Positions 10,557 to 58,725 of a stretch of DNA of 64,000 bases are shown piece by piece. Positions within the stretch are counted from its first letter, which is position 1. Each line of letters starts with the position of its first letter. The stretch is from Agromyces sp. 3263 (GTDB lineage: Bacteria; Actinomycetota; Actinomycetes; Actinomycetales; Microbacteriaceae). The translations under genes were made by a program, and so were the position numbers. The notes below the pieces were generated by a model that saw only the letters and a list, made by a program, of their open reading frames with translations, ran no database searches and had not been told where the DNA came from. Location of the stretch: the NCBI RefSeq assembly GCF_031456545.1, contig NZ_JAVDUV010000001.1:372001-436000 (forward strand), in the 5' to 3' direction.

Positions 10557-10564
10557 TGTCCCCC
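10557..10564 (+). promoter_or_regulatory. TGTCCCCC site 1 in the accE to sensor-kinase gap
   Basis: TGTCCCCCGTTCG here is identical over 13 bases to a site upstream of giant protein 1 (48468-48480, complement). It lies just after the accE stop codon. Confidence 0.35.
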
Positions 10565-10642
10565 GTTCGGCGTCGGCCGATGCGGAGCCGGGAACCCGCC
10601 GCCGCCGTATCGCGGGGACCGCTCGGAACGATCGGTCGGGGC

Positions 10643-10673
10643 TGTCCCCCGAAACCCTCGTTGTCCCCCCAAA
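10643..10673 (+). promoter_or_regulatory. Tandem TGTCCCCC sites 2 and 3
   Basis: TGTCCCCCGAAA (10643-10654) and TGTCCCCCCAAA (10662-10673) are direct repeats with a 19-base period. They sit shortly upstream of a weak promoter-like TTGCGA/CAGTAT pair. Direct repeats of short half-sites are normal for NarL/FixJ-type regulators, and one is encoded in the adjacent operon. Confidence 0.45.
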
Positions 10674-10742
10674 TGATGACTTTGCGATCGATGGCATCTG
10701 GTCCAGTATTGGTGTTGCAGGCTCCGTGATGGAGTCGCCACC

Positions 10743-10766
10743 GTCACCGGTCGGGTAACCGGTGAC
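10743..10766. repeat. 9-bp inverted repeat
   Basis: GTCACCGGT and ACCGGTGAC flank a six-base loop. It lacks a T-run on either strand, so it may be an operator or an RNA hairpin rather than a terminator. Confidence 0.5.
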
Positions 10767-10820
10767 CGTTGGGGGCGAGTCAGGGCGATATTCGGGTTGT
10801 CGCCGTGGCTCGGGCTTGAT

Positions 10821-10847
10821 GGGGGGTCGATCTCAGATCGGCCCCCC
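10821..10847. terminator. Bidirectional terminator-like hairpin
   Basis: GGGGGGTCGATC pairs with GATCGGCCCCCC (one T-G wobble) around the loop TCA. It lies 21 bases after the stop codon of the minus-strand sensor gene and also ends anything transcribed rightward from accE. Confidence 0.7.
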
Positions 10848-10867
10848 ACCTTCTTGTCCGGGGAACC

Positions 10868-11893
10868 TCACGCCCGGGTCACCTCGCTGCGCGGGATCTC
10901 CATCCAGAACTCGACCTCGAGGTCGTCGGTGTTCTGTGCCGGCGCCGCGCCGTCGGCCGGTTCCCTGAGGCCCACCACGGTCACCGCGACCGGAGACCCC
11001 TCCGCAGCGGTCCGGGCGATGATGCGATCGGCGTTCGACCGCGCCACCGCCTCCGCCAGGCGCGACAGCACCCGGTCGCGTGATGGCTCGTCGAGGTCGT
11101 CGATGCCGCCCTCGTCGAGCAGCGTCACGGTGATGCCCCGTTCGCGCGCGCGCTGCACCTCGGTGCGCACCGCGTCGGTCAGCAGCATCCGCCCACGGAT
11201 CTCGTCGCGGATCGCCGCCTCGAGCATGCGGCATTCGCGCCGCTGGCCCTCGGTCAGGACGCCCCCGACATCGGCGATGCGGCGGAGCATCGGCGCCGCG
11301 ATGCGATTCGTCTGGGCCAGTCGCATGCGACCCTCGAAGAGGTGCGCGTCCTGGGCGGCCTGCCACGCCGCAGCCTCGCGCTCGGCCTGGGCATACCGCC
11401 GGGTCTCGCGCGCTGCGGTCGTGAGGGCGGTCGTCAACATATGGGCGATCGCCACCCACACCATGCTGCCGATCACGCCCAGGGTGCCGAGCGCGATCGG
11501 CCCGGCCCAGATCACCGTCTGCACCGCGAGCACGATCACGCCCGTCCAGGCCGCCACCAGCTGACGCCTGGCCGCCGCGATGGTCATGAGCGTGCCGACC
11601 GCCGCCACGTACCAGGTCGCGTATCCGTTCGGGGCATCGGGATCGAGTTGGCTCGTCACCAGGAGGGGCATCACGATGCTCACGGCGAGGTCGAACGCGG
11701 CCAGCCAATCGGGCATCCGCATGCGCTTCGCCGGCCAGAGGCTCGCGGCCGTCGCGACCGAGTAGAGCACCAGCGCGACGATCGTGGGCAGCGGTGAGCG
11801 CGGGATGTTCAGCGAGTAGATGCCGAGCACCACATGGTAGATCGAGAAGAGGGCGCCGAGCGCGAGGAGGAGCCAGCGGGGCACGGTGATCAT
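10868..11893 (-). CDS. Degenerate histidine-kinase-like membrane protein
   Basis: A 341-residue partner of the sensor kinase encoded just before it. The first 155 residues contain about five or six hydrophobic helices (from WLLLALGALFSIYHVVLGIY to IGSMVWVAIAHML). A helical stretch rich in Arg/Ala/Glu follows (about 155-190), then a C-terminal region resembling a kinase ATPase fold. I see no His-Asp phospho-acceptor box and no N, G1 or G2 box, so catalysis is unlikely; it may modulate or heterodimerise with the real kinase. Its ATG overlaps the preceding stop (ATGA), which suggests fixed stoichiometry. The function is not assigned from homology. Confidence 0.65.
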   Translation of the reverse strand: MITVPRWLLLALGALFSIYHVVLGIYSLNIPRSPLPTIVALVLYSVATAASLWPAKRMRMPDWLAAFDLAVSIVMPLLVTSQLDPDAPNGYATWYVAAVGTLMTIAAARRQLVAAWTGVIVLAVQTVIWAGPIALGTLGVIGSMVWVAIAHMLTTALTTAARETRRYAQAEREAAAWQAAQDAHLFEGRMRLAQTNRIAAPMLRRIADVGGVLTEGQRRECRMLEAAIRDEIRGRMLLTDAVRTEVQRARERGITVTLLDEGGIDDLDEPSRDRVLSRLAEAVARSNADRIIARTAAEGSPVAVTVVGLREPADGAAPAQNTDDLEVEFWMEIPRSEVTRA

Positions 11894-13128
11894 ACGTCGC
11901 CCCCTGACGCGCCGGCCGGCCAGGCGATGGTGATCGTCGCGCCGTGGTGCGGAGCGGAGACGATCTCGGCGCTGCCGCCCGCGTTGGCCATGCGCTCCTC
12001 GATCGACACCCGGAGCCCGAGCCGTTCGTCGGGCACGCTCGACCGGTCGAAGCCCGCACCGTTGTCGGCGATCTCGATCACGCAGCCGCCGGCCCGAACC
12101 CCGCGGATCCGGAGCTCGCGTCGGGTGGCGCGTCCGGGTTCGTCGGCGTGCTGCATGCTGTTGACCATCGCCTGCACGGACGCCGTGTACAGCGCCTCGA
12201 CCGCCTCGACCGGCAGTTCCACCCCGCCCGCGTTCACCACGCGCACGGTGAAGGGCGCCGAGAAGGTGGTGAGTGCCGCCCGCAACCGCCGGACGAGCAC
12301 CGGCAGTCCCACGTTCTCGAGCGCTCGTGGGCCGGATGCGCCGGCCTCGTCGAGCCGGTTGATCGCATCGCGGGCCATTCGCGCCGCGAGCGCCTGCTCC
12401 TCGGGTGACGCCGCGGCCGCGGCCGAGAGCAGGGTGGTCAGCACGCTGTCGTGCACCAGGGCGTCCACCTTGACCCGCTCGTTCTCGGTGGCGTGCTGGC
12501 GGGCGGCGAGGTCGTAGCGCTGCAGCGCGCCCTCCTGTGCGGTGTCGACGGCCTCGGCCGCCTGGCGGAGCATGGTGATGATGACGAGGACGGCGACGCC
12601 GAGGATGACCGCGTACATGGCGTCGAGCACCGCGAGCAGGCCGTTGACCTGCCCGCCCGCGGGGAACAGCCGGATGATGCCGTAGAGGATCGGGATGGCG
12701 ATCGTGTAGGCCGTGGCGCCCGGCACGGGAAGGGCGATCACGGCGGCGGCCGTGGCGACGGTGCAGATGTAGTAGAGCCAGGGGGCCTGGCCGTCGAGTG
12801 CGGCAGGATCCACGACGAGCAGGGGCCACACCAGCAGTGCGAGGGCGTAGAGGCCCGCGAGCGCGAGGGCCGCACCGCGCACGGCCACCTTCGCGACGCT
12901 CGCGACGGCGAGCGTCGCCATGGTGCCGTACAGCACCGCCATGAGGGCGGCGCCGGCACCGGGGATCAGCGCCGAGGACTGCGCGAGTGCGAGCGGCAGC
13001 GTCTGCGCCCCGAACACGAGCCCGAAGAGGCCGAGCGCGCGCCCCGAGACGGTCTCGACCTGCGCACGCGTGACCGCGGTCCGGCGGCGCGTGGCGAGTC
13101 GCGCGACCCGCCATTCAACGGCGGCCAT
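11890..13128 (-). CDS. Sensor histidine kinase (NarX/DesK-like class)
   Basis: A 412-residue membrane histidine kinase. About six hydrophobic helices fill residues 25-190, with no large extracellular domain, suggesting it senses the membrane or envelope. The phospho-acceptor region KVDALVHDSVLTTLL follows near residue 225, His-Asp being the acceptor. The ATPase domain has an N box (ASVQAMVNSMQHAD), a G1 box (IEIADNGAGFD) and a closing HHGATITI. The ATG at 13128 is chosen over 13143 because GAAGGCGGGG precedes it; either start overlaps the regulator gene. It should phosphorylate the response regulator encoded immediately upstream. Confidence 0.88.
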   Translation of the reverse strand: MAAVEWRVARLATRRRTAVTRAQVETVSGRALGLFGLVFGAQTLPLALAQSSALIPGAGAALMAVLYGTMATLAVASVAKVAVRGAALALAGLYALALLVWPLLVVDPAALDGQAPWLYYICTVATAAAVIALPVPGATAYTIAIPILYGIIRLFPAGGQVNGLLAVLDAMYAVILGVAVLVIITMLRQAAEAVDTAQEGALQRYDLAARQHATENERVKVDALVHDSVLTTLLSAAAAASPEEQALAARMARDAINRLDEAGASGPRALENVGLPVLVRRLRAALTTFSAPFTVRVVNAGGVELPVEAVEALYTASVQAMVNSMQHADEPGRATRRELRIRGVRAGGCVIEIADNGAGFDRSSVPDERLGLRVSIEERMANAGGSAEIVSAPHHGATITIAWPAGASGGDV

Positions 13129-13801
13129 CCCCGCCTTCGCCATCGAGTCCGGGGAGGATGCCGTCTTCCACCGCGCGCCGCAGCAGGTCGACCTTGGTGG
13201 GCGCGGGTCGCCCCACCTCGACGTACTTGGCCCGGATGCGGTCGAGGTACTCCCTGGCCGTGGAGTGGGCGATGCCGAGCTGCACCGCGACGAGCTTCAG
13301 CGGCAGTCCTGACGCGTAGAGGTGCAGCACGTCGCGCTCACGACGCCCGAGCTGCGCCTTCGCGAAGTCGCGGTCGGCCTCGATCGCGCTCGCCCACTCG
13401 ACATTGTTGAGCACCTCGCCGTTGGCGACGGTCGCGATCGCACCGATGACCATGGACATGGGCGACGCCTTCGGGATGACGCCTGCGGCACCGGCGGCGA
13501 GCGCCTCGCGCACGGCGGCGACGCGATCGGCGATGCTGTGCACGAGCACGGCGCTGCCGGTGTCGCGCACGGCGTGCACGTTGCGCGTCACGGAGGAGCC
13601 GTCGCCGAGTGACAGGTCGAGCACCACCACGTCGCAGGAGCGGCCGTCGAGGGCGACGAGGAGGTCGGGGACGTTCGCCGTCTCGGCGACCACCACGTAG
13701 CCCGCCTCGCGGCACGCTGCCCGGAGCCCGAGCCGGACCGCCTCGTGGTCGTCGACGATCGCGACGGTCGCCGCAACCGGCGTGGGTGGTTCACCAGACA
13801 T
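13115..13801 (-). CDS. LuxR/FixJ-type response regulator
   Basis: A 228-residue two-component regulator. The receiver domain (residues 12-130) has the acidic pair in IVDDHE, the phospho-acceptor Asp62 in VVVLDLSLGD and a Lys in VIPKAS. The C-terminal LuxR helix-turn-helix starts at LGRRERDVLHLYASGLPLK and includes QLGIAHSTAREYLDRIRAKY. It heads an overlapping cluster with a kinase and a kinase-like protein and follows the methyltransferase gene by 23 bases. The ATG at 13801 is preceded by GGGGGA, which forms part of a GGGGGACA octamer shared with several intergenic sites. Its targets may therefore include the giant surface protein genes; this is inference. Confidence 0.9.
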   Translation of the reverse strand: MSGEPPTPVAATVAIVDDHEAVRLGLRAACREAGYVVVAETANVPDLLVALDGRSCDVVVLDLSLGDGSSVTRNVHAVRDTGSAVLVHSIADRVAAVREALAAGAAGVIPKASPMSMVIGAIATVANGEVLNNVEWASAIEADRDFAKAQLGRRERDVLHLYASGLPLKLVAVQLGIAHSTAREYLDRIRAKYVEVGRPAPTKVDLLRRAVEDGILPGLDGEGGDGRR

Positions 13802-47800: not shown

Positions 47801-48396
47801 GCGGTACAGCTGAAGAGCAGGGATCCGCCGGTGCGGGTGGTGTACAGCCCGAGCTGCACCCCCGGGAGCGCCGAGATCGAGTTCGGGTCGGCGGTGCTGC
47901 GCACGTCGCCGGTGCGCACGGTGATGACCGCGCTGTCACCCGTGGCCGGCGGAACGGCGAACACGCCGACGTCGCCCTGCGCCTCGTCGGGGGCGACCGT
48001 GCGCTGCTGCGGTGCGTCGGTCGGCTCGTCGGTCTCCGAGGGCTCCTCGGTCGACGTCTCGTCCGCCGGCTCGTCCGTCGGCTCCGTGCTCCCCTCGTCC
48101 GGAGTCGGCGTCGACTCGGCCGGGTCCGTCGCCGGATCCGTCGGGTCGGAGGACTCCTCCGTCGGTGCGACCGTCGTCGTCGCCTCCGAGGTCTCGCTCG
48201 TCGACGCATCCGTCGCCGGATCGTCGGCCGGATCGGCGAACGCCATCGTCGGCAGGCCGATCGCCAGCAGGCCCGCGACCGCGACGGCCGCGACGGCCCC
48301 GCGGAGCGTGCGCTTGCGCCGCTGGACCCGCTCTCGACGGCTTCGGCGCGTGGTGGAGGCGCCAGTGGATGAGGACCGGTCGAACAAGCTGTCCAT
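38899..48396 (-). CDS. Giant wall-anchored adhesin-like protein 1 (vWA head, multi-repeat stalk)
   Basis: A 3165-residue secreted protein. A signal peptide ends after AFA at 54; a Thr/Glu/Asp/Pro-rich arm runs to about 140. A prealbumin-like domain and a vWA domain (about 312-515, metal site MDLSGSVNSS, later LTDGNP) follow. The stalk has about nine SpaA-like repeats, each with Val-x-Lys at the start, a YTLxE glutamate, a Cys pair and a closing TN, and eight longer DUF11-like repeats. The C-terminus has a CVND module, a DUF11 domain and an anchor TAVTG (3125-3129), hydrophobic helix and RRRR. The anchor suggests a class E (LAxTG-like) sortase; none is encoded in the window. The ATG at 48396 fits the signal peptide; longer frames are non-coding. 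Confidence 0.85.
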   Translation of the reverse strand: MDSLFDRSSSTGASTTRRSRRERVQRRKRTLRGAVAAVAVAGLLAIGLPTMAFADPADDPATDASTSETSEATTTVAPTEESSDPTDPATDPAESTPTPDEGSTEPTDEPADETSTEEPSETDEPTDAPQQRTVAPDEAQGDVGVFAVPPATGDSAVITVRTGDVRSTADPNSISALPGVQLGLYTTRTGGSLLFSCTADAAGDCSFVVPDTDQGGVNRDREMWVRQIAAPAGYFTNPTLRTGDAFGGDNEATSYSFRVGLRPQQGNTWQIRQGQTYTTTPPAEFMVSSGNTNRDASGGVWQTSRNNVAAPQQCGLDVALVMDLSGSVNSSIAQAREAGTTLVDALVGTPSNVGLFTFASSAPANNSNNQNRPITAVSTAAGAATVNGWINGLTAPTNGNTNWDRGLHQVAVSPTAYDVAIVLTDGNPTVYGSETNPGDFTRVREVENAIFSANAIKAENTRVIALGVGNGVSNADTALNLRAISGPIAYNGSNPGTADYYQTANYAAAGAALRQLALGNCQGSVSVVKQVVPPGGTIQQAQPTGGWAISATNPTAGVTVGAPNPANGQTGAGTGSINYPLVFAGGTTTGTVVVRETMQAGFSGLPQSGLNAVCRNLSDPAQPIIAGVTNNNTVPGQPGVNVPVSPSTAVSCTFYNQAPNPAATVVVDKLWAINGQPAIPHGQNPALTGSAVVNGQGTGFGNVVGGFSAGQTIPINETLGSLPTLCQVVSKTVTQVNGSGTNVPLTNPYQLQLVAGANTVQITNTVTCPTRLTLRKDVADDAVPTNLWTLDALTPGGGALAFPEGQDSGSGVTGTITPGVVYPLAESGGDPRYTQLDNRDPVLSVPGSTGSWACVPLDANGQPTGGNAGGLNGGVNVGFGNWVQCTAVNQTARLTLVKTLQPLAGITADPAAWNLTATPNAPAIPGLNAQTVATGQTISVRPGKAYTISESGGPAGWEQVSIQCDTGPNGTYVTTTTVTLPALDNATCVITNRPIPPKLSLDKVVTGSVAPDTAWTLSATRNDTAAVVASGAGGTPGFVTVPAGVPFTLAETTALPNADQFQAGTWQCSKNGGGNVPGPAVGALSAGDSVACVVTNTLKPFTPTVVKNVAVPTMNADGTWTITYTIDVKNPSAFGPVTYGLADQLGFGGDITILDADYAEPNGGPSHPFSGGFGSVQTFTAGRSLPAGATDTWTVVVQAQVDAGAFADPENELACPAPTSGDDGGFLNTATLSVNGQTVGEDDACAEPVNPTITKVGGAAVANGDGTWTLPYTITVLNPSATTGVIYDLEDALDLPASAEVVGTATVVSAPVPTVVGWTGLAPNTLLADGISLPGTPGVDQHVYQIAVTVRIGADDPASTCPSDNGLNNTATLLSGNQETDATGCVTVDTPDIVHEKSVVFGSVSQGADGLWTIAYNLVVTNTDAFGGTYSLADELHFGAGVDLGGAGYAITKDGVPYPTSWAGSGDLAVDAYLAGNTSTTYRITVTGIALDGPDLTPAQTACPSGATDGAFNNAAVLTVGGEDTTDTACDSPSAPTISKTGATAAQQPDGSWNVSYTLTAANTAPGAKPSFYSLIDDPQFPAGVIYNSYVIDGGPTVAYDGTTDIVIATDQPIAAGETDVFTIVLNVDVPSGSVPPADLECTVAAPTPGKGFFNEAVLTSGEIVRDDEECTDITDGGVPTVSKGDPIVTQDADGVWTAVYDVTVTGNADFITKYTLSDTLRFGPEVEILSAEWTGEGDDGDWTDPEANPTETIVGSPKLIGIDEVDTYTVTVTATVDAEAFADPTTGTCAPTDGAPNVGFLNEASLTSGATTQTDTGCGLPAQPEVVKSTVGGVVQVGDHWEAGYQITVRNLSADQGLVYDLSDTPNFTEDVTIVDREITSADVTVNPAWNGADSTDDTVVEDQALAGGVTHTFQVVVSFTVDDVPGDASHRCDGEGGQGLLNGALVVSGDDYESEACFDVPVVVELQKLWVIDGGDPIAWDSDALPEGFEATPTLDGDPVAWGEEYGPYVEDDEVSIDETDVVIPEGCELVGTDGTGVETLVDTYNVFTVTNEVDCEQEVTLEKIVDNAHGGDGVATDWTLSATNVGDDADTFSGDGSATGSVQVDTGYTLNEVSIVWEDGVAYEVSQTWACTSPQGDDAFTLVTSDGATNATLTVTQLGASVDCEIVNTDVAPKLTLVKTVEPVEVSGEFPPTLWTLTASDGGIEVLSGAGGATGEVDSNTPYTLAESADFPGADEFEGGDWVCTVTSTDPNTPAQLEGSDVTLDPGQTVTCEIVNTAKPAEYLVDKTVSSTEQLPDGSWVIVYSLEVENLSGVSPLTYDLEDDLDLFGSGITVDEASWTGPDGASGSWDDLPATTTTTLADDVVLPSATTHVYTITVGATVTEEAWEDETTECSQENVEEGGFRNVGTLTVDGLPTEVSACDEPGQATAEKLVTGPATNLGLGNWEVEYEITVTNDSDDDLFYDLSDTPAFPAGVSITSAVATDPNGDVVASWNGDTDTTLTTGDAIAAGTTEVWTITIQAFVANIVSIDTVDCVASETGNGFFNGATFGNGTIVTELDDCTDIPVGQIGLQKFVDNSAFANIDLGGLTPLQANAWNVLAAGLVNVGGIGSGQLVFTVPTGTYSLSETPNATGLANPLLQFYENGAWGCIRGGQPTDATVVLGARVDCQVTNVAEPVDVGIVKEYVLPEGQTAVEEGDAFEYTLTVTNNGTEPVTNVVVSDLLPDTLEITGPATFDPDSGDFVENTVGNQFSATAAGPFGPGTITTITIPVLFTVVPVDSPPAVGPDDPPPVIPPLDSDPIPNEACVEVDEDDLFTTNDCDEVDVPVKRIDSGAYVRCVNDVPWLYYDISVTDNVAPADITVTWTSADGTLTKVETIPWDARTGRLLWPGAAVDANGIPYAFPGWRPITEQDLITPPTPGTRFLDLILDETVPTYPWRDQVNPATITFSINPSEEVLAVYPQALPTCAIERPSELVIEKTASVTSTKSDANFSYTLGVTSVGTGAADTVEIFDTIPGHLRVDSITTDAAPAFPRWEDCEVTGEDSAGYGGTLHCDLLGVLGPNITTAPDIVLGVHVRPGTTASSIVNTGEVCWDDADTGDDVPDLIECADDTVTVSLPQKTAVTGFASEPWLWFGGGLMLLGGLGVAWVLIRRRRGTVSGD
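39746..39783 (-). repeat. 38-base exact repeat shared with giant gene 2 (copy A)
   Basis: These 38 bases are identical to 49547-49584 and lie in the CVND-module coding region. The flanking few hundred bases are also very similar by eye, so the two genes share recent ancestry or gene conversion. Confidence 0.75.
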
Positions 48397-48430: not shown

Positions 48431-48461
48431 ATCTGAGGATTGCGCAACTGCGCCGAGTCAA
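48431..48461 (-). promoter_or_regulatory. Probable promoter of giant gene 1
   Basis: On the minus strand TTGACT (48456-48461) and TCAGAT (48431-48436) are separated by 19 bases, about 35 bases before the ATG. The long spacer suggests activator dependence. A TGTCCCCC site begins 11 bases upstream of the -35. Confidence 0.5.
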
Positions 48462-48472
48462 GCAGAGCGAAC

Positions 48473-48480
48473 GGGGGACA
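48473..48480 (-). promoter_or_regulatory. TGTCCCCC site next to the giant gene 1 promoter
   Basis: On the minus strand TGTCCCCCGTTCG abuts the -35 region, a normal activator position. The 13 bases match the site at 10557-10569. Confidence 0.45.
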
Positions 48481-48506: not shown

Positions 48507-48514
48507 GGGGGACA
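48507..48514 (-). promoter_or_regulatory. Second TGTCCCCC site upstream of giant gene 1
   Basis: TGTCCCCCGTATTG on the minus strand, 34 bases further upstream than the first site. Confidence 0.4.
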
Positions 48515-48616: not shown

Positions 48617-48624
48617 GGGGGACA
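48617..48624 (-). promoter_or_regulatory. Third TGTCCCCC site upstream of giant gene 1
   Basis: TGTCCCCCATGG on the minus strand, between the giant 2 terminator and the giant 1 promoter. The 300-base gap around it holds no gene. Confidence 0.35.
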
Positions 48625-48696: not shown

Positions 48697-51600
48697 TCAG
48701 GCCTCCGTGCGCACCTCGCGACGGCGGCGGATGATCGTCAGGCCGACGAGCACCGCGCCCAGGAGGGCGAGGATCCCGCCGCCCCAGACGAACGGCGTGA
48801 CGTCGAGTCCGGTCGAGGCGATCGCCGCCTGCTTCACGGGCACGTCGACGGTGTCGTCCGCGCAGGTGATGACCGGTTCTGCGTCGTCCGGGGCATCCGC
48901 GTCGTCCCAGCAGACCTCGCCGGTGTTCGAAATGGATGTCGCGTGGCTCGCGCCGTTCACGTGCACGCCGAGGGTGATCGGCGGCGCCGTCGTGAGGTTC
49001 GGCCCGAGCACGCCCAGGAGGTCGCAGTGGAGCACGCCTCCGTAGCCGGCGCTGTCCTTGCCCGTCACCTGGCAGTCCTCCCAGCGGGGGAAGGCGGGCG
49101 CCGGCGCCGTGTCGATCGAGTCGACGCGGAGGTCGGTCGGGATCGCGTCGAAGATCTCGACGGGCTCCGCTCCCCCGGTTCCCACCGAGGTGACCTTCAG
49201 CGTGTACTCGTAGTCGCCGCCCGGCGCCGTCGACGAGACGCTCGCCGTCTTCTCGATGTCGAGGTCGGGCGGACGCACGATCGCGCACGACGGCAGTGCC
49301 TGCGGGTAGGTGACGAGGACCGCTTGGCTCGGGTTGATCGAGAACGTCACCGTCGCCGGGTTCACCATGTCGCGCCAGGGGTACGTCGGCACGGTCTCAT
49401 CGAGGATGAGGTCGACGAACCTCGTGCCCGGCGTCGGCGGCGTGATCAGGTCCTGCTCGGTGATCGGGCGCCATCCCGGGAACTGGTAGGGGATGCCGTT
49501 CGCGTCGACCGCGGCGCCCGGCCAGAGCAGCCGCCCACTGCGAGCGTCCCACGGGATCGTCTCGACCTTGGTCAGCGTGCCGTCGCCCGACGTCCAGGTC
49601 ACGGTGATCGGGCCCGGCGCGACGCTGTCCGACACCTGGATGTCGTAGTACAGGTACGGCACGTCGTTCACGCAGCGCGGGTAGGCGCCGGAGTCGATGG
49701 CCTTCTGGGGCACGTCGACGTCATCGCAGTCGTTGGTCGAGATGAGGTCCGCCAACGCGCCTTCGGTCTCCGTGATCGCGACGCACGCGTCGTTCGGGAT
49801 GTCACCGAGGTCGACGGGCTCCACCACGGGCGGCGGATCGTTCGGCCCGACGACGGGAGGCGTGCCGACCGGTGCGGGCTGGAGCATCGTGACCGGGATG
49901 TGCACCGTCACGACGTCACCCGGCGCGAACGGTCCGACGCCGTGGGCGGAGAACTGGTTCGCCTCGTTGATGTCGGTGGTCGCCGGGTCGTCGACGGGTG
50001 TCGTCTCGGTCCATCCGGCCGCGGGGTCGAAGGTCGCCGCACCCGTGATCGCGAACCTGGCGTCGATGGTGTCGGCGATGTCGAGCTCGGCGACCGGGAG
50101 CGTTCCGTTGTTCCGCACCGTGAGCACGTAGTCAAACTCGTCGCCGGCGTCGACCGCGGTCGCGCCCTCGGCCAGCTCGTACGCCTTCTCGAGGCTGACG
50201 TCGACCGATTCGGCTTCGTTCTCGACCGCACAGCTCGTCAGGTGACCGAGGGTGACCGTACCGACGTCATTCGTGTCCACCCTCGCGCCGCCGTCGACGC
50301 CGCACAGCCAGTCGCCGTTGAAGTAGTACGCGAGGAGCGGGTAGTCGGCCTTCGCCTGGGAGATCGCCTCGAGCAGCGAGTAGTCGCCCGTGGGCACCGT
50401 GAACACGAGGCCCGCGTCGCCCTTGACGAGCAGCTGCGTCGCCTTCGCGGCGTTGTCGCCGGTGAGGTTCCAGTCGCCCGGAGTGAGCACCGAGAGCGAT
50501 CCCGGCGTCACCCCGCCGAGGTCGATCCGGCTGAGGATCGCCTCGAGTGCCGAGTTGTCGACCGTCTTCTGGAGCTGGATGCGTCCGACCGGGATCGTCG
50601 CGCAGTCGTCGACCGGGGTGACGATCGTGCCGTTGAGCAGCGTCGCCCCGTTGAAGAACCCGTGGCCGCTCGTCGAGGCGAGGCAGGTCACGTCGTCGAG
50701 GTCGGTGATGTCCACCACGTTCGCCACGACGACGATCGTGTAGGTGTGCACGTCGAGCGGAGCGATCACCTCGTCGTCGGCGAGCACCGTCTCGCTGTCG
50801 CCGTCCCACGCCGAGGTGTCGACGCCGGCGTCGTTGGTTGCCGCGGCGTCCTCGATCGTGACGCCGGCCGGGAAGCCGAGGTCGTCTTCGAGGTCGTAGT
50901 ACAGGTCGAGGTGGTCGCTCTGACTCGTCACCACGACCTCGTAGACGACCTTCCAGTCGCCCCCGCCGAGGTTCTCGGGCGAACCCACGACGTCCTTCGT
51001 GACGGTCGTGCGTCCGGGCTCGTCGCAGTCGGTTGCGGCGAGCGGTTCACCCTCCCCGACGGTCAGGAACGCCGTGTTGCGGAATCCGCCCGGCTCGGTG
51101 TCGCCCGGCTGGCAGAGGTCCTGGCTGGTCTCGTAGACCTGCTCAGGCACGGTCGCGTTGATCGTGATGATGTACGTGTCGGTGCCGGATGCCGCGACCG
51201 ACGCGTCCCGCGCCAGCACGAAGTTCGACGCCTCCGCGTCCCAGTTCGCGGCTTCATCCGACGGTCCGGTCGCCGACGAATCGTTGATCACGACGCCGAC
51301 GCCGAAGTAGGGCTCGTCGTCGAGGTCGTAGACGAGCGGCGCGACCGGGCTCTGGTTGGTGACGGTCACCTCATAGACGAGGTCCCAGGTGCCGTCGGCG
51401 TCCTGCTCGATGGACGTGAGGTCCTTCGAGATCACGCCGGTCGGCGGCACGACGTCGTTGGTCACCTCGCAGGTGAGCGAGGCGCCCGGCGTCGCGACGA
51501 ACTGGTTCCCCGTCGTCGCCGGGTCGTCGTCGGTGCAGACCACCGCGCCGCCAGACCAGCCCTCGGGCAGTTCGCCCTCGGCGACCGTGTAGACGGTGCC

Positions 51601-54600
51601 GATCGCGAGGTTCGTCCAGGTCACGCTGTCGGTCTCGTCGCCGGTTCCCGACACGGACTGCTCGGCCTGCGGCAGCACGCCGTCGGCCGGCGTGATCGTG
51701 AGCGGGAACTCCCAGTCGAATCCGACGGGGACGCCGGTGACGTGCTTGGTGACGGTGACGTCACCGGGCTGCGCCGTGTTGGTGACGGTGCAGCTGAGCG
51801 AGAGGCCCGGCGTCACGAGGAACTGGAATCCGGCGAGCGCCGCATCGGCGTCCTCGAGGTCGCCGCTGTTGCACATGACGTCGCCCTCGTTCCAGCCACC
51901 CACGTCGCCCTCGGAGAGCGTGTAGGTCTGGCCCACCACGAGGTCGTTCCAGCTCACGCTGGAGTCACCCTGCGTGACGTGCTGGGTCGCGTCCTGACCG
52001 GTGACCGCCGGCGAGATCGTGATCGCGAAGTCGAAGGGGTAGCCCTGCGGTACCCCTGCGACGATCTTGCGCACCGTCACGTCGCCCGTGTCCGGCACGT
52101 TCGTGTAGGTGCACGTGACGGTCTGGCCGGCCGCGAGGGTGATCGCCGCCGTGGCATCCGTGACCTCGACACCACCGCTCGGCGAGCACTCCAGGCCCTG
52201 GAGGTCCCAGTTCGCCGTCCCCGACTCGTGCACGGTGTAGGTCCCGGGCAGGAGCTGCCCGAAGACCTTCGCCGGGTCGCCGTCGGTCAGGGTGAAGTCG
52301 GTGGCGGGGTCGTCACCGTTGTCGAACGTGAACGGGAAGGCGACGGATGCACCGCCGGGAATCGAACCCACGCCCGGCACCACCTTGTCGATGATGATCG
52401 TCGACAGTTCGGTGTTCGAGTAGGTGCACGTGACCGTCTCGCCCGGATCGAGGTCGATGAGGCCCTTCAGCGCGTTCGCCTGGTCGATGGAGGAGCCGCC
52501 ATCGGCTCCGCCCGTGCGCGATTCCACGCAGCCGACGAGGTGACCGACGTAGCTGTTCGTCAGCAGTTCGGTGACGCTATAGCTGCCGGCCACGACGGAG
52601 TCGTAGATCTTCGTACCGACACCACCGGCCGTGGCGATGTCGAAGGCGCCGACCGAGGGGTTGCCGCCCGAGGGCCAGGTGCCCGTGAACTGGAAGGTCC
52701 CGTCAGCACCGTCGATGTTCTTGACGATGATGATCTTGCCCTTGGCCGTGTTCGTGATGTCGCAGGCGAAGACATCGCCCGCCTGCACGGTGAAGCCGCT
52801 CTCGGTGACCGGCTGTGCGGCATCGCTGCCCGCGTGCTTCACGGTGCAGGTGAGCTCCCCCGCGACCCAGCCGCTCCCGGGGTTCTTCTCGGCCAGGGAG
52901 TAGGTCGTTCCGGGCACGAGGTCGGCGAACGTCGTCTCGGCCGACCCGCCGCCGGTGGGGGTCGTGATCATCTGCTCGACCGGGGCGCCCGCGGGGGCGA
53001 GCGGGGTGAGCACGAAGGTGAAGGTGCCGCCGGCACCGACCGAGGTCTTCGTGATCTTCGCGGAACCCGCTGTGGCCGTGTTCAACACGGTGCACGAGAG
53101 CGTGAAGCCCGGCGTGACGATGAACTGGTCTCCGGCCAGGTTCGGGTTCGAGTCGGGGCCGCACTCGACGGCGCCACCGGTCCAGCCCGCCCGGGGCTTC
53201 TCCGTGATCGTGTACTCGGTGCCGACGTCGAGGTGCTTCCACGTGACGCTGTCGCTCGTGTTGCCCGAGCCGCTCACCGTCTGCGTGGCACCGGGGGTCA
53301 CCCCGACACTCGGCGAGATCGTGAGGTCGAACTCCCAGTCCGTGTCGGGCGCGACACCGGCCACCGTCTTCTCGACGGTCACCTCGCCGGGGGTGGCGAC
53401 GTTCGTGATGTCGCAGGTCACGACGAGACCCGGGGTCACGGTGAACTGCCACTTCGCTCCGGGAAGGCTCTCGCCGACGTTGCAGGTGAAGCCCTGCGTC
53501 GTGTACCCGGCGACGGTCGGCTCGCTCAGCGTGTAGGTCTGGCCGACGATGAGGTCGGTCCACTTGGCGGTCGGGGTCTCGTCGGAGACGGTCTTCGGGT
53601 TCTGCTGGCCGCCGGGAACCGGGTCGATCCCGATCTGGAAGGCCCAGTCGTCGGCGCCGTCCACGTGCTTGGTGACGGTGACCTCGCCGCGCGTCGCGGT
53701 GTTGAGCACGGTGCAGGTGACCGTCTCGCCCGGGTCGAGCGTGATGGTGATCGGCGAATCCGTGGTGGGGTTCTCGTTGGTGCACGTCATGCTCGTGACA
53801 TCCCACCCGGCGAGCGCCGCCTCGGTGAGGGTGTAGGTGCCGGGCTTGACCTGGTTGAATGCCTTCTCGCCGCCGTCCTTCAACGCGAAGCCGGGCTGGC
53901 CCGTGAGGGTGAAGTCGAAGGAGGTCGTCGCCCCGTCGGGGTTCGTCTCCTTCTTGACGATGATGTTGCCGCGCTGCGTGTTCGTGTAGGTGCAGGTGAC
54001 GAGCTCACCCGGTTCGAGGTGGATGCTCGCCACGCCCGTCGCCACATCGCCCGTCGAGGCGACGCCCGTGGCGTCGTCGGTGCAGGTGAGGGCGGTGAGG
54101 TCGTACGCGGGTGCCGGCGTCGTCTCGGTCACCGTGTAGTCGCCCGCTGCGACGCTCGTGTAGTCCTTCGACCCGGTCTTCGCGTCTCCGGTCGTCGTGA
54201 TCTGGAACGGACCCCCGGGGATCGTCGTCGTGAAGTCGAACGTGCCGTTCGCCCCCGCGACGTTCTTGATGATCCTGATCGCGCCGTCCTGCCGGTTGGT
54301 GAACGTGCACTCGGTGATCTGCCCGGCGACCGTGGTCACCACGGCGGTGCCGGTCGCGAGGGTGGTGGTGGCCGGGGTGGAGCAGGTGAGGTCGGTGAGA
54401 TGCCAGGCGGGCGTGCCGGGCTCGGGGAACTCGTTGATCGTCACGGTCGATCCGGGCACGAAGTACGTCACCGCGGAGCTCTGTCCGCCGTCGACCTTCA
54501 CCGGCGTGCCGTTGACGGCGAAGTCGAACGTGGTCGGGTCGCCCTGGGCGACCTTCGTGATCTTCACGCCCGAGGTGGAGTTGGTGATGACGCAGGTGGT

Positions 54601-55896
54601 GGTGGCCCCGACGAAGAGCTTGAAGGGCTGGTTCGTGTAGGTCTCGACCTGGTTGGTCGACGGGTTCGTCACCGTGCAGACGGTGGACTGGTGCACCCAC
54701 GGCTGTCCGGCATCGACCGTCTCGGCGAGCTGGTAGTCGGTGCCGGCGAACACGTTGCCCCAGGTGTGGGTGTCCCCGACGCCGATCGGCGCGGCGATCG
54801 CGTTGTTGTTCCCCTGCGGAAGCACCGGACCGGTCAACGTGCTGTCGTGCACGATGCCACCGCCGGTACGGGTCACGGTGTAGTCGAAGACGTCCTCGGA
54901 CGTGGCGTCCGCCGGGTTCGCGACCTTCTTCACGACGAGGCCGCCGCAGTTGGTGATGGTCAGCGGGTTGGACGACTTCAGGATGTCCTGCAGCGTCGCG
55001 GTGTCGCTGTTGCCCGTGCGGGTGATGAATCCGGCGTCGAGGAAGGTGCGACACGCGCCGTCGCTCGGCAGGAGGTTGGAGGCCGTCAGGTCGACCGCCA
55101 TCTCGCCGAAGGTCGCGTCGTTGCCCGACGTGTTGGTGTCGGTGTTCTTCCCGACCGCGGCCTGGTAGACGATGGGCGTGCCGATCGGCTCCCAGCTGTT
55201 GCCGTCCCAGCTCAGCACGCGGATGGAGGTGTTCGGTGTTCCCGACGGGTCGTAGTTGAACTCGATGAGGTAGTCGTCGGCACGTCCCGCGGCCGGTCCC
55301 TCGAAGAGCTCGTACGAAGTCATGTCGCCGTTGCCCGACAGCCGAGTCCAGTACGCGTAGAAGATCGTGTGCGGGACCCCGCCGATCGTGACGACCTCGT
55401 ACGCCGAGCCGCCGGTGCACGCGTCGCCCTTCGCGTTCGCGGAGTTGCTGATGAGGCCGGCCCACGGGTTGTCGTCGACCTTCGCACCGCCCGGGAAGAC
55501 GCTCAGCGTCTCGGCGGCACCACAGGTACCGGGTGAGCCGAGCGTCGCGCCGCTGTCGGCCGTGCGCTGCGCGGCGATGATGCCGGTCGACGGACCCATG
55601 TTCGTCTGGTACGGCGGCTTCGGCGTGGACCCCACCACGCCCTGCCAGTCGTTCGCGCCTGCGGTGTTGCCGTCGATCTCGAAGCTCGTGACGAGGCCGT
55701 TCGTGAGCGTCGCGGCCTCCGCGGAGGACGCGGGCGCGAGCGCCACGGCGACCATCCCGCTCGTCGCGACCAGCGCGCCGACGACGAGGGTGCTGAGCAG
55801 GCGCCGCCTCGAGCGGCGGTGCAGGAGTCGCGCCATCCGGGAGTCGGGCAGGTCGTCGGTCGAACGGGCGTGCACACGCGTCTTCGCGCTCATCAT
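48697..55896 (-). CDS. Giant wall-anchored protein 2 (SpaA-like repeat stalk)
   Basis: A 2399-residue secreted protein. The signal peptide ends near residue 61 (SSAEA). A 270-residue head follows (TNGLVTSFEIDGNTAGANDW onward) that I cannot assign. About twelve SpaA/prealbumin-like repeats of roughly 100 residues come next, each opening like EVTVTKHVDG, with a YTLSE-type glutamate, two cysteines and a closing xTN: the Lys/Glu/Asn set expected for intramolecular isopeptide bonds. Two DUF11-like repeats, a DUF11 domain, a CVND module and a last DUF11 domain lead to IASTG (2359-2363), a helix and RRRR. The last 900 residues are homologous to giant protein 1, module for module. GAAGG precedes the ATG at 55896. 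Confidence 0.85.
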   Translation of the reverse strand: MMSAKTRVHARSTDDLPDSRMARLLHRRSRRRLLSTLVVGALVATSGMVAVALAPASSAEAATLTNGLVTSFEIDGNTAGANDWQGVVGSTPKPPYQTNMGPSTGIIAAQRTADSGATLGSPGTCGAAETLSVFPGGAKVDDNPWAGLISNSANAKGDACTGGSAYEVVTIGGVPHTIFYAYWTRLSGNGDMTSYELFEGPAAGRADDYLIEFNYDPSGTPNTSIRVLSWDGNSWEPIGTPIVYQAAVGKNTDTNTSGNDATFGEMAVDLTASNLLPSDGACRTFLDAGFITRTGNSDTATLQDILKSSNPLTITNCGGLVVKKVANPADATSEDVFDYTVTRTGGGIVHDSTLTGPVLPQGNNNAIAAPIGVGDTHTWGNVFAGTDYQLAETVDAGQPWVHQSTVCTVTNPSTNQVETYTNQPFKLFVGATTTCVITNSTSGVKITKVAQGDPTTFDFAVNGTPVKVDGGQSSAVTYFVPGSTVTINEFPEPGTPAWHLTDLTCSTPATTTLATGTAVVTTVAGQITECTFTNRQDGAIRIIKNVAGANGTFDFTTTIPGGPFQITTTGDAKTGSKDYTSVAAGDYTVTETTPAPAYDLTALTCTDDATGVASTGDVATGVASIHLEPGELVTCTYTNTQRGNIIVKKETNPDGATTSFDFTLTGQPGFALKDGGEKAFNQVKPGTYTLTEAALAGWDVTSMTCTNENPTTDSPITITLDPGETVTCTVLNTATRGEVTVTKHVDGADDWAFQIGIDPVPGGQQNPKTVSDETPTAKWTDLIVGQTYTLSEPTVAGYTTQGFTCNVGESLPGAKWQFTVTPGLVVTCDITNVATPGEVTVEKTVAGVAPDTDWEFDLTISPSVGVTPGATQTVSGSGNTSDSVTWKHLDVGTEYTITEKPRAGWTGGAVECGPDSNPNLAGDQFIVTPGFTLSCTVLNTATAGSAKITKTSVGAGGTFTFVLTPLAPAGAPVEQMITTPTGGGSAETTFADLVPGTTYSLAEKNPGSGWVAGELTCTVKHAGSDAAQPVTESGFTVQAGDVFACDITNTAKGKIIIVKNIDGADGTFQFTGTWPSGGNPSVGAFDIATAGGVGTKIYDSVVAGSYSVTELLTNSYVGHLVGCVESRTGGADGGSSIDQANALKGLIDLDPGETVTCTYSNTELSTIIIDKVVPGVGSIPGGASVAFPFTFDNGDDPATDFTLTDGDPAKVFGQLLPGTYTVHESGTANWDLQGLECSPSGGVEVTDATAAITLAAGQTVTCTYTNVPDTGDVTVRKIVAGVPQGYPFDFAITISPAVTGQDATQHVTQGDSSVSWNDLVVGQTYTLSEGDVGGWNEGDVMCNSGDLEDADAALAGFQFLVTPGLSLSCTVTNTAQPGDVTVTKHVTGVPVGFDWEFPLTITPADGVLPQAEQSVSGTGDETDSVTWTNLAIGTVYTVAEGELPEGWSGGAVVCTDDDPATTGNQFVATPGASLTCEVTNDVVPPTGVISKDLTSIEQDADGTWDLVYEVTVTNQSPVAPLVYDLDDEPYFGVGVVINDSSATGPSDEAANWDAEASNFVLARDASVAASGTDTYIITINATVPEQVYETSQDLCQPGDTEPGGFRNTAFLTVGEGEPLAATDCDEPGRTTVTKDVVGSPENLGGGDWKVVYEVVVTSQSDHLDLYYDLEDDLGFPAGVTIEDAAATNDAGVDTSAWDGDSETVLADDEVIAPLDVHTYTIVVVANVVDITDLDDVTCLASTSGHGFFNGATLLNGTIVTPVDDCATIPVGRIQLQKTVDNSALEAILSRIDLGGVTPGSLSVLTPGDWNLTGDNAAKATQLLVKGDAGLVFTVPTGDYSLLEAISQAKADYPLLAYYFNGDWLCGVDGGARVDTNDVGTVTLGHLTSCAVENEAESVDVSLEKAYELAEGATAVDAGDEFDYVLTVRNNGTLPVAELDIADTIDARFAITGAATFDPAAGWTETTPVDDPATTDINEANQFSAHGVGPFAPGDVVTVHIPVTMLQPAPVGTPPVVGPNDPPPVVEPVDLGDIPNDACVAITETEGALADLISTNDCDDVDVPQKAIDSGAYPRCVNDVPYLYYDIQVSDSVAPGPITVTWTSGDGTLTKVETIPWDARSGRLLWPGAAVDANGIPYQFPGWRPITEQDLITPPTPGTRFVDLILDETVPTYPWRDMVNPATVTFSINPSQAVLVTYPQALPSCAIVRPPDLDIEKTASVSSTAPGGDYEYTLKVTSVGTGGAEPVEIFDAIPTDLRVDSIDTAPAPAFPRWEDCQVTGKDSAGYGGVLHCDLLGVLGPNLTTAPPITLGVHVNGASHATSISNTGEVCWDDADAPDDAEPVITCADDTVDVPVKQAAIASTGLDVTPFVWGGGILALLGAVLVGLTIIRRRREVRTEA
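49547..49584 (-). repeat. 38-base exact repeat shared with giant gene 1 (copy B)
   Basis: Identical to 39746-39783, in the same orientation. Recombination between the copies would delete about 9.8 kb and fuse the head of giant 2 to the tail of giant 1. Confidence 0.75.
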
Positions 55897-56046: not shown

Positions 56047-56081
56047 TGGTCGTCCGCTCCGCGGGCCGTCGGCTGAGCACA

Positions 56082-56118
56082 GCGGATGCCGCGACCGAGG
56101 CTCGGTCGCGGCATCCGC
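56082..56118 (-). terminator. Terminator of the LPGTG protein gene
   Basis: GCGGATGCCGCGACCG pairs perfectly with CGGTCGCGGCATCCGC around AGGCT, 27 bases after the stop codon. The arms contain the over-used heptamer. Confidence 0.75.
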
Positions 56119-56145
56119 GTGCCCGTCATCACGGGCGCTGTGCGG

Positions 56146-58605
56146 TCACTCCGTCATGCGGCGGCGCGACCGTGCGGCAGCCAGTCCCACCCCGCCGGCG
56201 ACGAGGAGTCCGAGCGCGGCGGCGAGGAATCCGCCCGTCTCGAAGCCCGTGCCCGGGAGTGCCGAGCTCGACGTCGAAGCCGGCACCACGGTGGGCGGCG
56301 TGTTCGACGGCGGCGCCGCGTTGCAGTTCGGCGTCGGCGGCGGGTAGACCGCGACCGCGTCGTTCGACGGGTTGATCCGGATCTCGACGACCGCCTCGGA
56401 CCGGAGGTCGTAGAACGGCGCACTCGGGTCGAGGACCCAGGTGCCGTCGGCGAGGAGCGTCCATCCCGGCCAGTCGATCGGGTTGCCGGCGGCATCGACC
56501 TCGGCGCCGGGCCAGAGCTTCTGGTCGGAGATGGGCTGGCCGCTCATCCATCCGTCCGGGTACGCGATCGGGTCGACCTGGGAGGCGCCGTCGGCGAGGA
56601 TCGCCGCGACGTCGCTCGCCGGGATCGACGGGTCACGGTCGGCGAATGCGTCGGGCGTCCACCAGATCAGCACGATCGGGTTGGCCGACGGGTCGTCAAT
56701 GTTGTACGGCGTGATCGAGTAATCGAACAACGGGGTGTCGTTCACGCACTGCGCCGCGGCGGTGAGGCCGATCGACTTGACCGGTGTCGTCGCGTCGTCG
56801 CAGTTGTCGGACTCGTCGGCCTCGAAGCCGATCAGGGGACCGTCCCCGCTCATGCCCGGATCCTCGTACGGCTCACTGGCCACGCAGGCACGGTTCACGA
56901 GGTCGGGGATCGGGCCGGTGCCGGGCTGCGCGAGCTCGCCCACGGTCACATCGAACGTGATCATGATGACGTCGCCCGGTTCGATGTATCCGTCGTGCTG
57001 GACGGTCATGACTCCGTCCACCACCTCGACCGGACCCCACTCGGCCGGGTTCGGTGAGATGACCGCGGAGCCCTCGACGTAGGTGACGCCGTCGGGCAGC
57101 TCGTCGGTGACGAGGCTGTGGAATGCCGCGACCTGGCCCTCGTTGGTGATCGTCAGCGTGTAGGTGATCACGTCGCCCTCACCCGAGTCGACCGGCTGGT
57201 CGCCATCGGTCGCGGCGTCCTTCACCAGCACGAGGTTCACGTCGCCCACCGGGTGGTCGACCACGCACGGGTCGTCCTCCTCGAGCACGGGGCACTCGCC
57301 GTCGCCGGTCGGCGCGACCACGTTGTGGAGGAGCTCGCCCGTTGCGTCGGCGTCGACGGTGACCGAGTAACTGACGGTGGCCACGTCGCCGGGCTGGAGG
57401 TCGGGGATGTCCCACGTCAGCACGCCATCGACGGGGCCGCTGAGTCCGCTGGCCAGCGGGAGCTGGAGCGTCGCGTTGTCGAGGACGTCGGAGACGTCAT
57501 CGAGCGCCACCGCGTCGGTGACCGGCACCTCGGACGTGTTCGTCGCGGTCAGCGTGTACGTCACCGTGGATCCGGCCGGCACGGTGGCGCCGTCAACGGG
57601 GTCCGAACTCTTCTCCAGCTCCCAGAACGGCAGCGGGCAGGCCTCGAGCGTGATGGTCCTCATGAGGTCGGTCTCGGGGTCGGCGCCGACACGGTGGAGC
57701 ACCACGTCGTAGTCGCCCGGCGGGAGCGGGTTGAAGGTGCCGCTCAGCGTTCCGCTCGCGGCTTCGAACGAGACCGTGCCGACGACCTCGGTGGTGCCGG
57801 CGACGTACACGGTCAGCTCGTAGTCGAACGAGATCGCGAGGTCGGACAGGTCGTACTCGATGGTGCGCCCCTCGGTGACCACGGCCGGGCACGGCGCGAC
57901 CGAGAGCACCACGCCGACCGGCGGCAGGTTGCAGTCGTTCTCGAAGATCGGCAGGAGATCGAGGTTCAGGCCCGGGAAGTGGTGCTGCCCGCCGTCCTTG
58001 TCGAAGTAGTCGAACTCGGGGATGATGTCGCCGAAGTCCTGGTGCATCGAGTGCGCGTGGTTCGCGTCGTACTCGTCGTTCGGGTCGCCGTTGGGGTCGA
58101 TGATGGAGCGCACGCTCGGGCTGATGAACACGTACGGGTTCGTCGCGCTCGCCGTCGCGTGGCAGATGTCCACGTGGTCGTTCCACTCGGGGATGGTCGT
58201 CACGGGCGGTCCCCCGGCGTCGGCGGGTGCGACCCGGGCGGCGGCCTGTTGGGCGGTCGCATCGGAGAGCGTCGCCTCCGGTTCGGACCCGACCGCGGGC
58301 GCCGCCGCCGGATCCGGTTCGGGTGGCGGCGGCGACTCCTCCACCGCGGCGAGCGGTGCCTCCGCCTCGACGACGGGGTCGGGCGCCGGCGCCGGCTCCG
58401 CGGCCGGCTCGGCCACGGGCTCCGTCGCGACGGTCGCCTCGGTCCCGACTGGATCCGCCGGGATCTCCTCGGCGGCCGCCACAGTCGGGGCGCCGAAGAT
58501 CACGAGTGCGCCGACGACGGCGCCGGCGAGGATGGTGCGAATGCCTCCACGCGCCCGCATTCCGGAGGAATGGCGCGCGTGACGGGTCTGCATGATCGGG
58601 TACAT
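56146..58605 (-). CDS. LPGTG-anchored surface protein with an ICHA module and DUF11 repeats
   Basis: An 819-residue secreted protein. The signal peptide ends near residue 45 (TVAAA). A Pro/Ala/Glu-rich arm reaches residue 140. A Cys/His-rich module at about 145-223 has HVDICHATASATNPYVFISP, ANHAHSMHQDFGDIIPEFDY and GQHHFPGLNLDLLP; I have seen this ICHA type in actinobacterial surface proteins but know no function. Two DUF11 repeats follow (around 330-560), then the CVND module (CVNDTPLFDY, LWPGAEVD, RINPSNDAVAVYP), then LPGTG at 783-787, a helix and RSRRR. GGAG precedes the ATG. It probably shares sorting and surface location with the two giant proteins. Confidence 0.85.
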   Translation of the reverse strand: MYPIMQTRHARHSSGMRARGGIRTILAGAVVGALVIFGAPTVAAAEEIPADPVGTEATVATEPVAEPAAEPAPAPDPVVEAEAPLAAVEESPPPPEPDPAAAPAVGSEPEATLSDATAQQAAARVAPADAGGPPVTTIPEWNDHVDICHATASATNPYVFISPSVRSIIDPNGDPNDEYDANHAHSMHQDFGDIIPEFDYFDKDGGQHHFPGLNLDLLPIFENDCNLPPVGVVLSVAPCPAVVTEGRTIEYDLSDLAISFDYELTVYVAGTTEVVGTVSFEAASGTLSGTFNPLPPGDYDVVLHRVGADPETDLMRTITLEACPLPFWELEKSSDPVDGATVPAGSTVTYTLTATNTSEVPVTDAVALDDVSDVLDNATLQLPLASGLSGPVDGVLTWDIPDLQPGDVATVSYSVTVDADATGELLHNVVAPTGDGECPVLEEDDPCVVDHPVGDVNLVLVKDAATDGDQPVDSGEGDVITYTLTITNEGQVAAFHSLVTDELPDGVTYVEGSAVISPNPAEWGPVEVVDGVMTVQHDGYIEPGDVIMITFDVTVGELAQPGTGPIPDLVNRACVASEPYEDPGMSGDGPLIGFEADESDNCDDATTPVKSIGLTAAAQCVNDTPLFDYSITPYNIDDPSANPIVLIWWTPDAFADRDPSIPASDVAAILADGASQVDPIAYPDGWMSGQPISDQKLWPGAEVDAAGNPIDWPGWTLLADGTWVLDPSAPFYDLRSEAVVEIRINPSNDAVAVYPPPTPNCNAAPPSNTPPTVVPASTSSSALPGTGFETGGFLAAALGLLVAGGVGLAAARSRRRMTE

Positions 58606-58661
58606 GACAGCTCCAGGGATACGGGTTCAGAGCCGGCTCGGGTAAGGGGCTCAGGACCGCC

Positions 58662-58691
58662 AGTCTGCGCTCGTCACCGGTGCCATTCCAA
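58662..58691 (-). promoter_or_regulatory. Probable promoter of the LPGTG protein gene
   Basis: On the minus strand TTGGAA (58686-58691) and CAGACT (58662-58667) have an 18-base spacer; the leader would be about 50 bases. Confidence 0.4.
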
Positions 58692-58705
58692 GGATTTCTC
58701 GTATT

Positions 58706-58725
58706 TGTCCCCCGAAGACGGGGGG
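58706..58725. promoter_or_regulatory. TGTCCCCC palindrome upstream of the LPGTG protein gene
   Basis: TGTCCCCCGAAGACGGGGGG has CCCCC and GGGGG arms and begins 15 bases upstream of the -35. It is the best palindromic form of the motif in the window. Confidence 0.45.

What the first reader, a model, noticed from the sequence alone, without database searches (positions are those of the whole stretch)
10557..58725. TGTCCCCC octamer confined to intergenic DNA links a two-component system to the giant surface proteins
Seen directly: TGTCCCCC or GGGGGACA occurs at 10557, 10643, 10662, 13805, 48473, 48507, 48617 and 58706. I found no copy inside a gene in a by-eye scan of both strands. Three copies flank the response-regulator/sensor operon, three lie upstream of giant gene 1 (one against its -35), and one forms a palindrome upstream of the LPGTG gene. 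The 10557 and 48468-48480 sites share 13 bases. Inference: the FixJ-type regulator at 13115-13801 controls the wall-anchored proteins and perhaps a small RNA next to its own operon. Caveat: the 13805 copy is also a ribosome site.
Basis: partly seen in the sequence, partly recalled or inferred. Interest (0 to 1): 0.78.

Follow-up and report, generated by a model that had tools for sequence, protein, structure and literature searches.

The report
Regulator-linked small RNA and surface-gene motif
The short DNA motif marks the promoter of an apparently undescribed small RNA gene that sits beside one conserved two-component regulator in much of a bacterial family, and in this genus related copies also mark the promoter of a giant surface protein.

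Summary
In detail: 8 octamers, all intergenic by my gene calls; 0 of 100 shuffles reach 8. TGTCCCCC is the most intergenic-biased of 2020 8-mers in the window and second of 7432 in relatives' surface-gene loci. Genome-wide it is not confined to intergenic DNA (26 of 41).

Following it led further. The 10662 copy is the left half of a 20-bp box, TGTCCYCCNAARTGNYGACT, before an unannotated ~140-nt RNA (about 10718-10857, +) beside the kinase operon. The RNA reaches no Rfam threshold, and its helices covary. Strong hits lie in 164 of 249 Microbacteriaceae genomes, 162 of which have the regulator. The exact box is in 102 genomes, all regulator-positive; the reversed control is in 0 of 249. Of 101 box sites in genomes with a listed RNA place, 94 lie 22-33 nt before it.

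The surface link is real in DNA: 12 of 30 giant-gene-1 loci carry 31 octamers, against 1.7 per permuted octamer. But these copies share only the box's left half, so common control is inferred. There are no binding or expression data. Likeliest: the NarL/FixJ-type regulator activates the RNA and, in Agromyces, surface genes.

The parts
10662..10681 (+). 20-bp box TGTCCCCCCAAATGATGACT, presumed activator site of the small RNA promoter
   Evidence: box before 71 of 71 recognised RNAs (up to 5 mismatches allowed by what was found); matrix score 33.4 here, next best in the window 11.2
10707..10713 (+). predicted -10-like element TATTGGT (no conserved -35 seen)
   Evidence: near-fixed spacing after the box in aligned loci; inferred, start not mapped
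10718..10857 (+). small RNA gene: three hairpins, two with GGGU loops, then a terminator stem (10821-10848)
   Evidence: model R1 hit at window 10710-10865; ends are predicted
10557..10564 (+). distal octamer upstream of the small RNA
   Evidence: extra octamers upstream of the box in 19 of 26 Agromyces loci
10643..10650 (+). second extra octamer upstream of the small RNA box
10868..11893 (-). kinase-like membrane protein, 341 aa, no Pfam or NCBIfam match; 'degenerate kinase' is my reading of the sequence
11890..13143 (-). sensor histidine kinase, 417 aa (HATPase_c); start codon uncertain
13115..13801 (-). NarL/FixJ-type response regulator, 228 aa
13805..13812 (+). octamer copy overlapping the ribosome site of the response regulator gene
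48473..48480 (-). proximal octamer of giant gene 1 promoter, 19 nt before TTGACT
48456..48461 (-). predicted -35 TTGACT of giant gene 1
   Evidence: promoter anchor found in 21 of 30 related loci, TTGACT in 20
48507..48514 (-). distal octamer of giant gene 1 promoter (TGTCCCCCGTATTGGTGTC)
   Evidence: 34 bp from the proximal site here and in six related loci
48617..48624 (-). third octamer upstream of giant gene 1
38899..48396 (-). giant surface protein 1, 3165 aa, SpaA_2 repeats
48697..55896 (-). giant surface protein 2, 2399 aa, SpaA_4 repeats
56146..58605 (-). LPGTG surface protein, 819 aa
58706..58713 (+). octamer in a short palindrome upstream of the LPGTG gene

Best explanation
The octamer is the core of a regulatory site. 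Its best defined form is a 20-bp box, TGTCCYCCNAARTGNYGACT, centred roughly 47 nt before the predicted start of a small RNA that is conserved in most of the sampled family and usually lies tail to tail with the two-component operon. Most likely the phosphorylated NarL/FixJ-type response regulator binds this box and activates the small RNA from a promoter that has a -10 but no -35 element. In Agromyces, looser and repeated copies of the left half (TGTCCCCCGWW) add to that promoter and also stand before giant surface gene 1 and, less regularly, other envelope genes, and are probably read by the same regulator. The RNA presumably acts in trans through its two conserved GGGU hairpin loops. Shown here: motif, RNA conservation and covariation, co-occurrence, spacing. 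Inferred: transcription, binding, activation, phosphorylation, and the RNA's mode of action.
For: Box before 71 of 71 recognised RNAs. Exact box in 102 of 249 family genomes, all among the 179 with the regulator; reversed control in 0 of 249. Of 107 exact box sites, 101 lie in genomes with a listed RNA place; 94 of those are 22-33 nt before the RNA model hit. Strong RNA hits in 164 of 249 genomes, 162 of them regulator-positive; RNA within 4 kb downstream of the regulator in 122 of 131 pairs placed on one contig. One genome (G058) keeps regulator and RNA side by side with no kinase homologue found in the 8-kb locus. Regulator median identity 78.5% against 48% and 59% for the two kinase-like genes. 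RNA helices covary: 48 two-sided changes against 13.7 in shuffles, 0 of 500 as high. Surface promoter: 31 octamers in 12 of 30 related loci against 1.73 per permuted octamer. TGTCCCCCGWWT: 78 sites against 4 for the reversed pattern in 60 Agromyces genomes.
Against: No binding, expression or start-site data. Co-occurrence across related genomes is not independent evidence; genomes without either are often small ones. Surface copies in the window score at background with the full 20-bp matrix, so they may answer to another protein. 18 of 30 giant-gene loci have no exact octamer. 17 regulator-positive genomes have no strong RNA hit and 2 strong-RNA genomes have no regulator at the cut-off. Six of the 101 box sites are away from any listed RNA, and one lies 96 nt before it. 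Total octamer count in the genome barely exceeds its reversed control (41 against 34).
Confidence: 0.72

Rival explanations
1. Two regulators: the two-component regulator reads only the full 20-bp box of the small RNA, while the surface-gene octamers belong to a different protein with a CCCCCG-centred site, some of them palindromic (CCCCGAAAACGGGG).
For: Full-box matrix scores of the window's surface sites are at background (best 2.3), and in giant-gene relatives mostly below 7. The surface context is TGTCCCCCG followed by WWT or WTTGG, without the right half. Palindromic forms occur.
Against: The same short copies are enriched just upstream of the small RNA box (Agromyces 27 in 26 loci against 0.41 per permuted octamer; other genera 15 in 47 loci against 0.56), and a 15-base match joins the two places. 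One giant-gene relative (G267) has a site scoring 13.8.
Confidence: 0.25
2. The RNA is real but the neighbouring regulator is not its activator; linkage reflects a stable chromosomal neighbourhood only.
For: accD and the methyltransferase are also stable neighbours. No binding data.
Against: Of 164 strong-RNA genomes 162 have the regulator, including 9 where it is more than 4 kb away and 2 where it is on another contig. G058 keeps regulator and RNA without kinases. The regulator is more conserved than the other neighbours compared, except accD.
Confidence: 0.15
3. The octamers are compositional accidents of C-rich intergenic DNA.
For: Genome total is near the reversed control (41 against 34). 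In seven other 20-kb stretches of this genome the octamer is 0 intergenic, 1 coding.
Against: Permuted octamers of the same composition are not intergenic-biased in the window (7.4%). Position, spacing and flanks are conserved in relatives.
Confidence: 0.02

Closest known systems
GacS/GacA - RsmX/Y/Z (Pseudomonas)
   Same: Response regulator with an upstream site shared by small RNA genes; small RNAs with repeated loop motifs. From passages of PMC2375449; that GacA is a LuxR-type regulator and that its site is largely confined to these RNAs is recalled.
   Different: Different box. Loops carry GGGU rather than repeated GGA. CsrA was not found in this genome. The RNA gene is usually adjacent to the regulator operon.
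DosR - DrrS (MTS1338) in Mycobacterium
   Same: Actinobacterial regulator that activates a small RNA promoter (abstract of PMC5360333); DevR/DosR is among the nearest solved structures by sequence.
   Different: RNA of another lineage; no Rfam family reached its threshold here. DosR site and RNA structure were not compared directly.
Ms1 RNA of actinobacteria
   Same: Actinobacterial small RNA found through conserved gene neighbourhood (PMC9130861, passages).
   Different: Ms1 neighbours are HAD hydrolase and oxidoreductase genes, in intergenic regions over 300 nt; here accE and a kinase-like gene flank an RNA of about 140 nt.
6C RNA (recalled)
   Same: Actinobacterial small RNA with two conserved hairpin loops.
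   Different: 6C loops are C-rich (recalled); these carry GGGU. The Rfam scans listed no 6C match.

Membership tests
NarL/FixJ (LuxR-type) response regulators | Receiver domain plus GerE/LuxR helix-turn-helix | tested here: met
   PF00072 (2.3e-14) and PF00196 (2.7e-06); nearest solved structure by sequence NarL 1a04
Named NCBIfam regulators (UhpA, NarL, MadR, MctR, GacA and others) | Score above the curated cut-off | tested here: not met
   22 families listed, none over its cut-off; best 70.7 bits against 258
Any Rfam RNA family | Gathering score reached | tested here: not met
   none in the window; best sub-threshold C4, 24.6 bits against 45
Stand-alone structured RNA gene | Conserved, covarying structure with terminator and no gene downstream on the same strand in this genome | tested here: met
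   transcription itself not tested
Csr/Rsm-type sponge RNA | Repeated GGA loops and a CsrA protein in the genome | tested here: not met
   CsrA in 37 of 120 family genomes, none in this genome; ANGGA anywhere in 29 of 71 RNAs, GGGT at least twice in 70 of 71
Gac-like circuit | Regulator binds the small RNA promoter box and activates it | not testable with these tools
   only co-occurrence and spacing available
Ms1 RNA | HAD hydrolase / oxidoreductase gene neighbourhood | tested here: not met
   neighbours are accE and a kinase-like gene; neighbourhood criteria

The most novel reading that the evidence does not exclude
A Gac/Rsm-like switch invented separately in an actinobacterial family: a dedicated two-component system whose main direct product is a small RNA with two GGGU loops that titrates or guides an unidentified RNA-binding protein other than CsrA, and which in Agromyces also directly switches giant adhesin-like surface proteins.
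Probability: 0.2. Interest if true: 0.85.

Novelty: new member of a known kind. Interest (0 to 1): 0.68.

Why it matters
It gives a large, little studied family (Microbacteriaceae, including soil bacteria and plant pathogens) a candidate core regulatory RNA together with its regulator and site; I found none of them described in the searches made (listings only). The exact box is single-copy in 97 of the 102 genomes that have it, so the regulator's prime target can be tested with one footprint and one deletion strain. It also makes testable how giant SpaA-repeat surface proteins are switched.

Tried and rejected
Pairing of the RNA loops with start regions of genes: of 160 genes giant gene 1 ranks 65, giant gene 2 ranks 15 and the LPGTG gene 6. 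I judged this no signal; five unrelated background genes rank above all three, and an 8-base match before giant gene 1 that I saw by eye is not kept in relatives. CsrA sponge: rejected. Link to exopolysaccharide genes: an octamer stands before a DUF4012 gene in this genome, but 0 of 29 relatives' loci keep one. Envelope bias of genes behind other intergenic octamers (CHAP/amidase protein, sugar transferase, S15 peptidase and others) looks suggestive, but the background of N-terminally hydrophobic genes is already 43 of 116 and I made no formal test. A second exact box in genus g60 (3 genomes) precedes a 105-114-aa membrane-like protein next to gat genes; not pursued.

Rows dropped and mended. 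Of 81 regulator loci (80 fetched plus the window), 4 had no recognisable accD end and 6 no recognisable RNA core, leaving 71. Searches used wrong start or strand handling and are superseded. Nine of 30 giant-gene loci had no promoter anchor. Box-RNA spacing (84 of 86) left out second sites and some listed places; one search recounts all 107 sites and is the one used. Regulator-RNA distances use the 133 genomes for which both list a place (the lists are cut), 131 of them on one contig. Genome RNA searches used Infernal's stricter filters, which lose weak matches.

Full report
The observation. The genome (4.07 Mb, Agromyces by relatives: regulator 94% identical to that of Agromyces sp. Marseille-P2726) holds 41 copies against 34 for the reversed octamer. 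Of the 41, 26 are intergenic and 15 in predicted genes. So the octamer is neither rare nor strictly intergenic, but it is biased: permuted octamers of equal composition fall 7.4% intergenic in the window, and 12.7% both in seven other 20-kb stretches of this genome and in relatives' surface loci. In those seven stretches the octamer itself is 0 intergenic, 1 coding. In 277 kb of surface-gene loci from relatives, chosen by protein and not by motif, 16 of 17 octamers are intergenic, and it is second of 7432 8-mers by that bias; 9 of those 16 loci have none.

The small RNA. Aligning the stretch between the second kinase-like gene and accE in the 80 fetched regulator loci plus the window showed a conserved element that matches no Rfam family at threshold. 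Of 77 stretches that could be cut out, 71 carry the core. All 71 have a 20-bp box, found allowing up to 6 mismatches (most seen: 5), at near-constant distance from a TATTG-like -10 element; across 70 boxes ten of 20 positions are invariant. The window's element folds well (z -4.78). An alignment of 40 sequences gives 26 predicted pairs, 21 of them with two-sided changes. A stated three-hairpin structure on 19 sequences has 92.8% of cells paired and 48 two-sided changes against 13.7 in shuffles. TCGGGT is in 71 of 71, and at least two GGGT in 70 of 71. It ends in a terminator stem and meets the kinase operon tail to tail, so here it heads no gene.

Family-wide tests. In 249 Microbacteriaceae genomes the regulator (E <= 1e-60) is in 179, and the RNA model in 181 at E <= 0.01, 164 of them strong (E < 1e-8). 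Of the 164, 162 have the regulator; 17 regulator-positive genomes lack a strong RNA hit, and 2 strong-RNA genomes lack a regulator at that cut-off. The exact box is in 102 genomes (107 sites), every genome regulator-positive, against 0 of 249 for the reversed pattern. Of the 107 sites, 6 lie in genomes without a listed RNA place; of the other 101, 94 lie 22-33 nt before the RNA, one 96 nt before it, and 6 elsewhere. The RNA lies within 4 kb downstream of the regulator in 122 of 131 pairs on one contig, on the opposite strand in 125. In 198 genomes of the order, the 7 hits stronger than 1e-20 are all in this family; the next is 2.6e-6. In G058 the regulator directly abuts the RNA, with no kinase homologue found in the 8-kb locus. 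In G191, which has no model hit, the box and an RNA-like sequence with GGGU loops stand at the same place (read by eye).

The surface genes. Upstream of giant gene 1 and its relatives, 12 of 30 loci hold 31 octamers, against 1.73 per permuted octamer; a comparison gene (DUF4012) has 1 in 30, this genome's own. Nine of the loci hold three or four copies, and in seven of these two copies are 34 bp apart. A promoter anchor is found in 21 of 30, with TTGACT in 20. In 60 Agromyces genomes TGTCCCCCGWWT occurs 78 times, in 34 genomes, against 4 reversed. Extra octamers also crowd the 170 bp before the small RNA box: 27 copies in 19 of 26 Agromyces loci against 0.41 per permuted octamer, and 15 in 12 of 47 loci of other genera against 0.56. 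Against a simple reading: with the 20-bp matrix the window's RNA promoter scores 33.4, while the window's best surface site scores 2.3, under a chance hit in coding DNA at 11.2; in giant-gene relatives the octamer sites reach 6.9, and one other site, in G267, 13.8. Hence the surface copies are half-sites of the same regulator or sites of another.

Mechanism. The regulator is a NarL/FixJ-type protein below the cut-off of every listed NCBIfam family, with a kinase and a second kinase-like gene without a Pfam match. A box about 57 nt before the predicted start, with no -35, fits activation (inference). The RNA's action is unknown. CsrA was not found in this genome and is present in 37 of 120 family genomes, so a CsrA sponge is unlikely here, and pairing to surface-gene starts gave no clear signal.

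What is known. Gac/Rsm (PMC2375449, passages) and DosR-DrrS (PMC5360333, abstract and outline) are regulator-small RNA pairs of the same kind. Ms1 (PMC9130861, passages) differs in neighbourhood. Searches for small RNAs with Microbacteriaceae, Clavibacter, Agromyces, Micrococcales and actinobacterial LuxR regulators gave nothing on this RNA in the listings seen; only open-licence papers are held.

Noticed in passing
window 38899-48396 and 48697-55896: The two giant proteins end in a hydrophobic stretch and basic tail but have no LPXTG; the tails read AVTGF and ASTGLD before the membrane segment, perhaps a variant sorting signal.
   Followed up: no
window 10868-11893: Second kinase-like membrane protein without any Pfam or NCBIfam match, found in 79 of 80 loci (median 59% identity), more conserved than the true kinase (48%).
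   Followed up: partly
L019:2007-2026: Best full box after the RNA's own in the stretches of this genome that I held (TGTCCCCCGAAACGCCGACA, score 22.9), intergenic, 305 bp before a DUF7882 gene.
   Followed up: no
L179, L180, L181 (G146, G200, G249): A second exact box in genus g60 upstream of a small membrane-like protein beside the gat genes, in three genomes.
   Followed up: partly
window 6151-7044: A DarT-like ADP-ribosyltransferase gene (PF14487).
   Followed up: no
L002 (G000:C1:143500-147500): A gene for a protein with a signal-peptide-like start has octamers in a palindrome-like setting 228 bp upstream, next to a gene whose product resembles the C-terminal end of the LPGTG protein.
   Followed up: no
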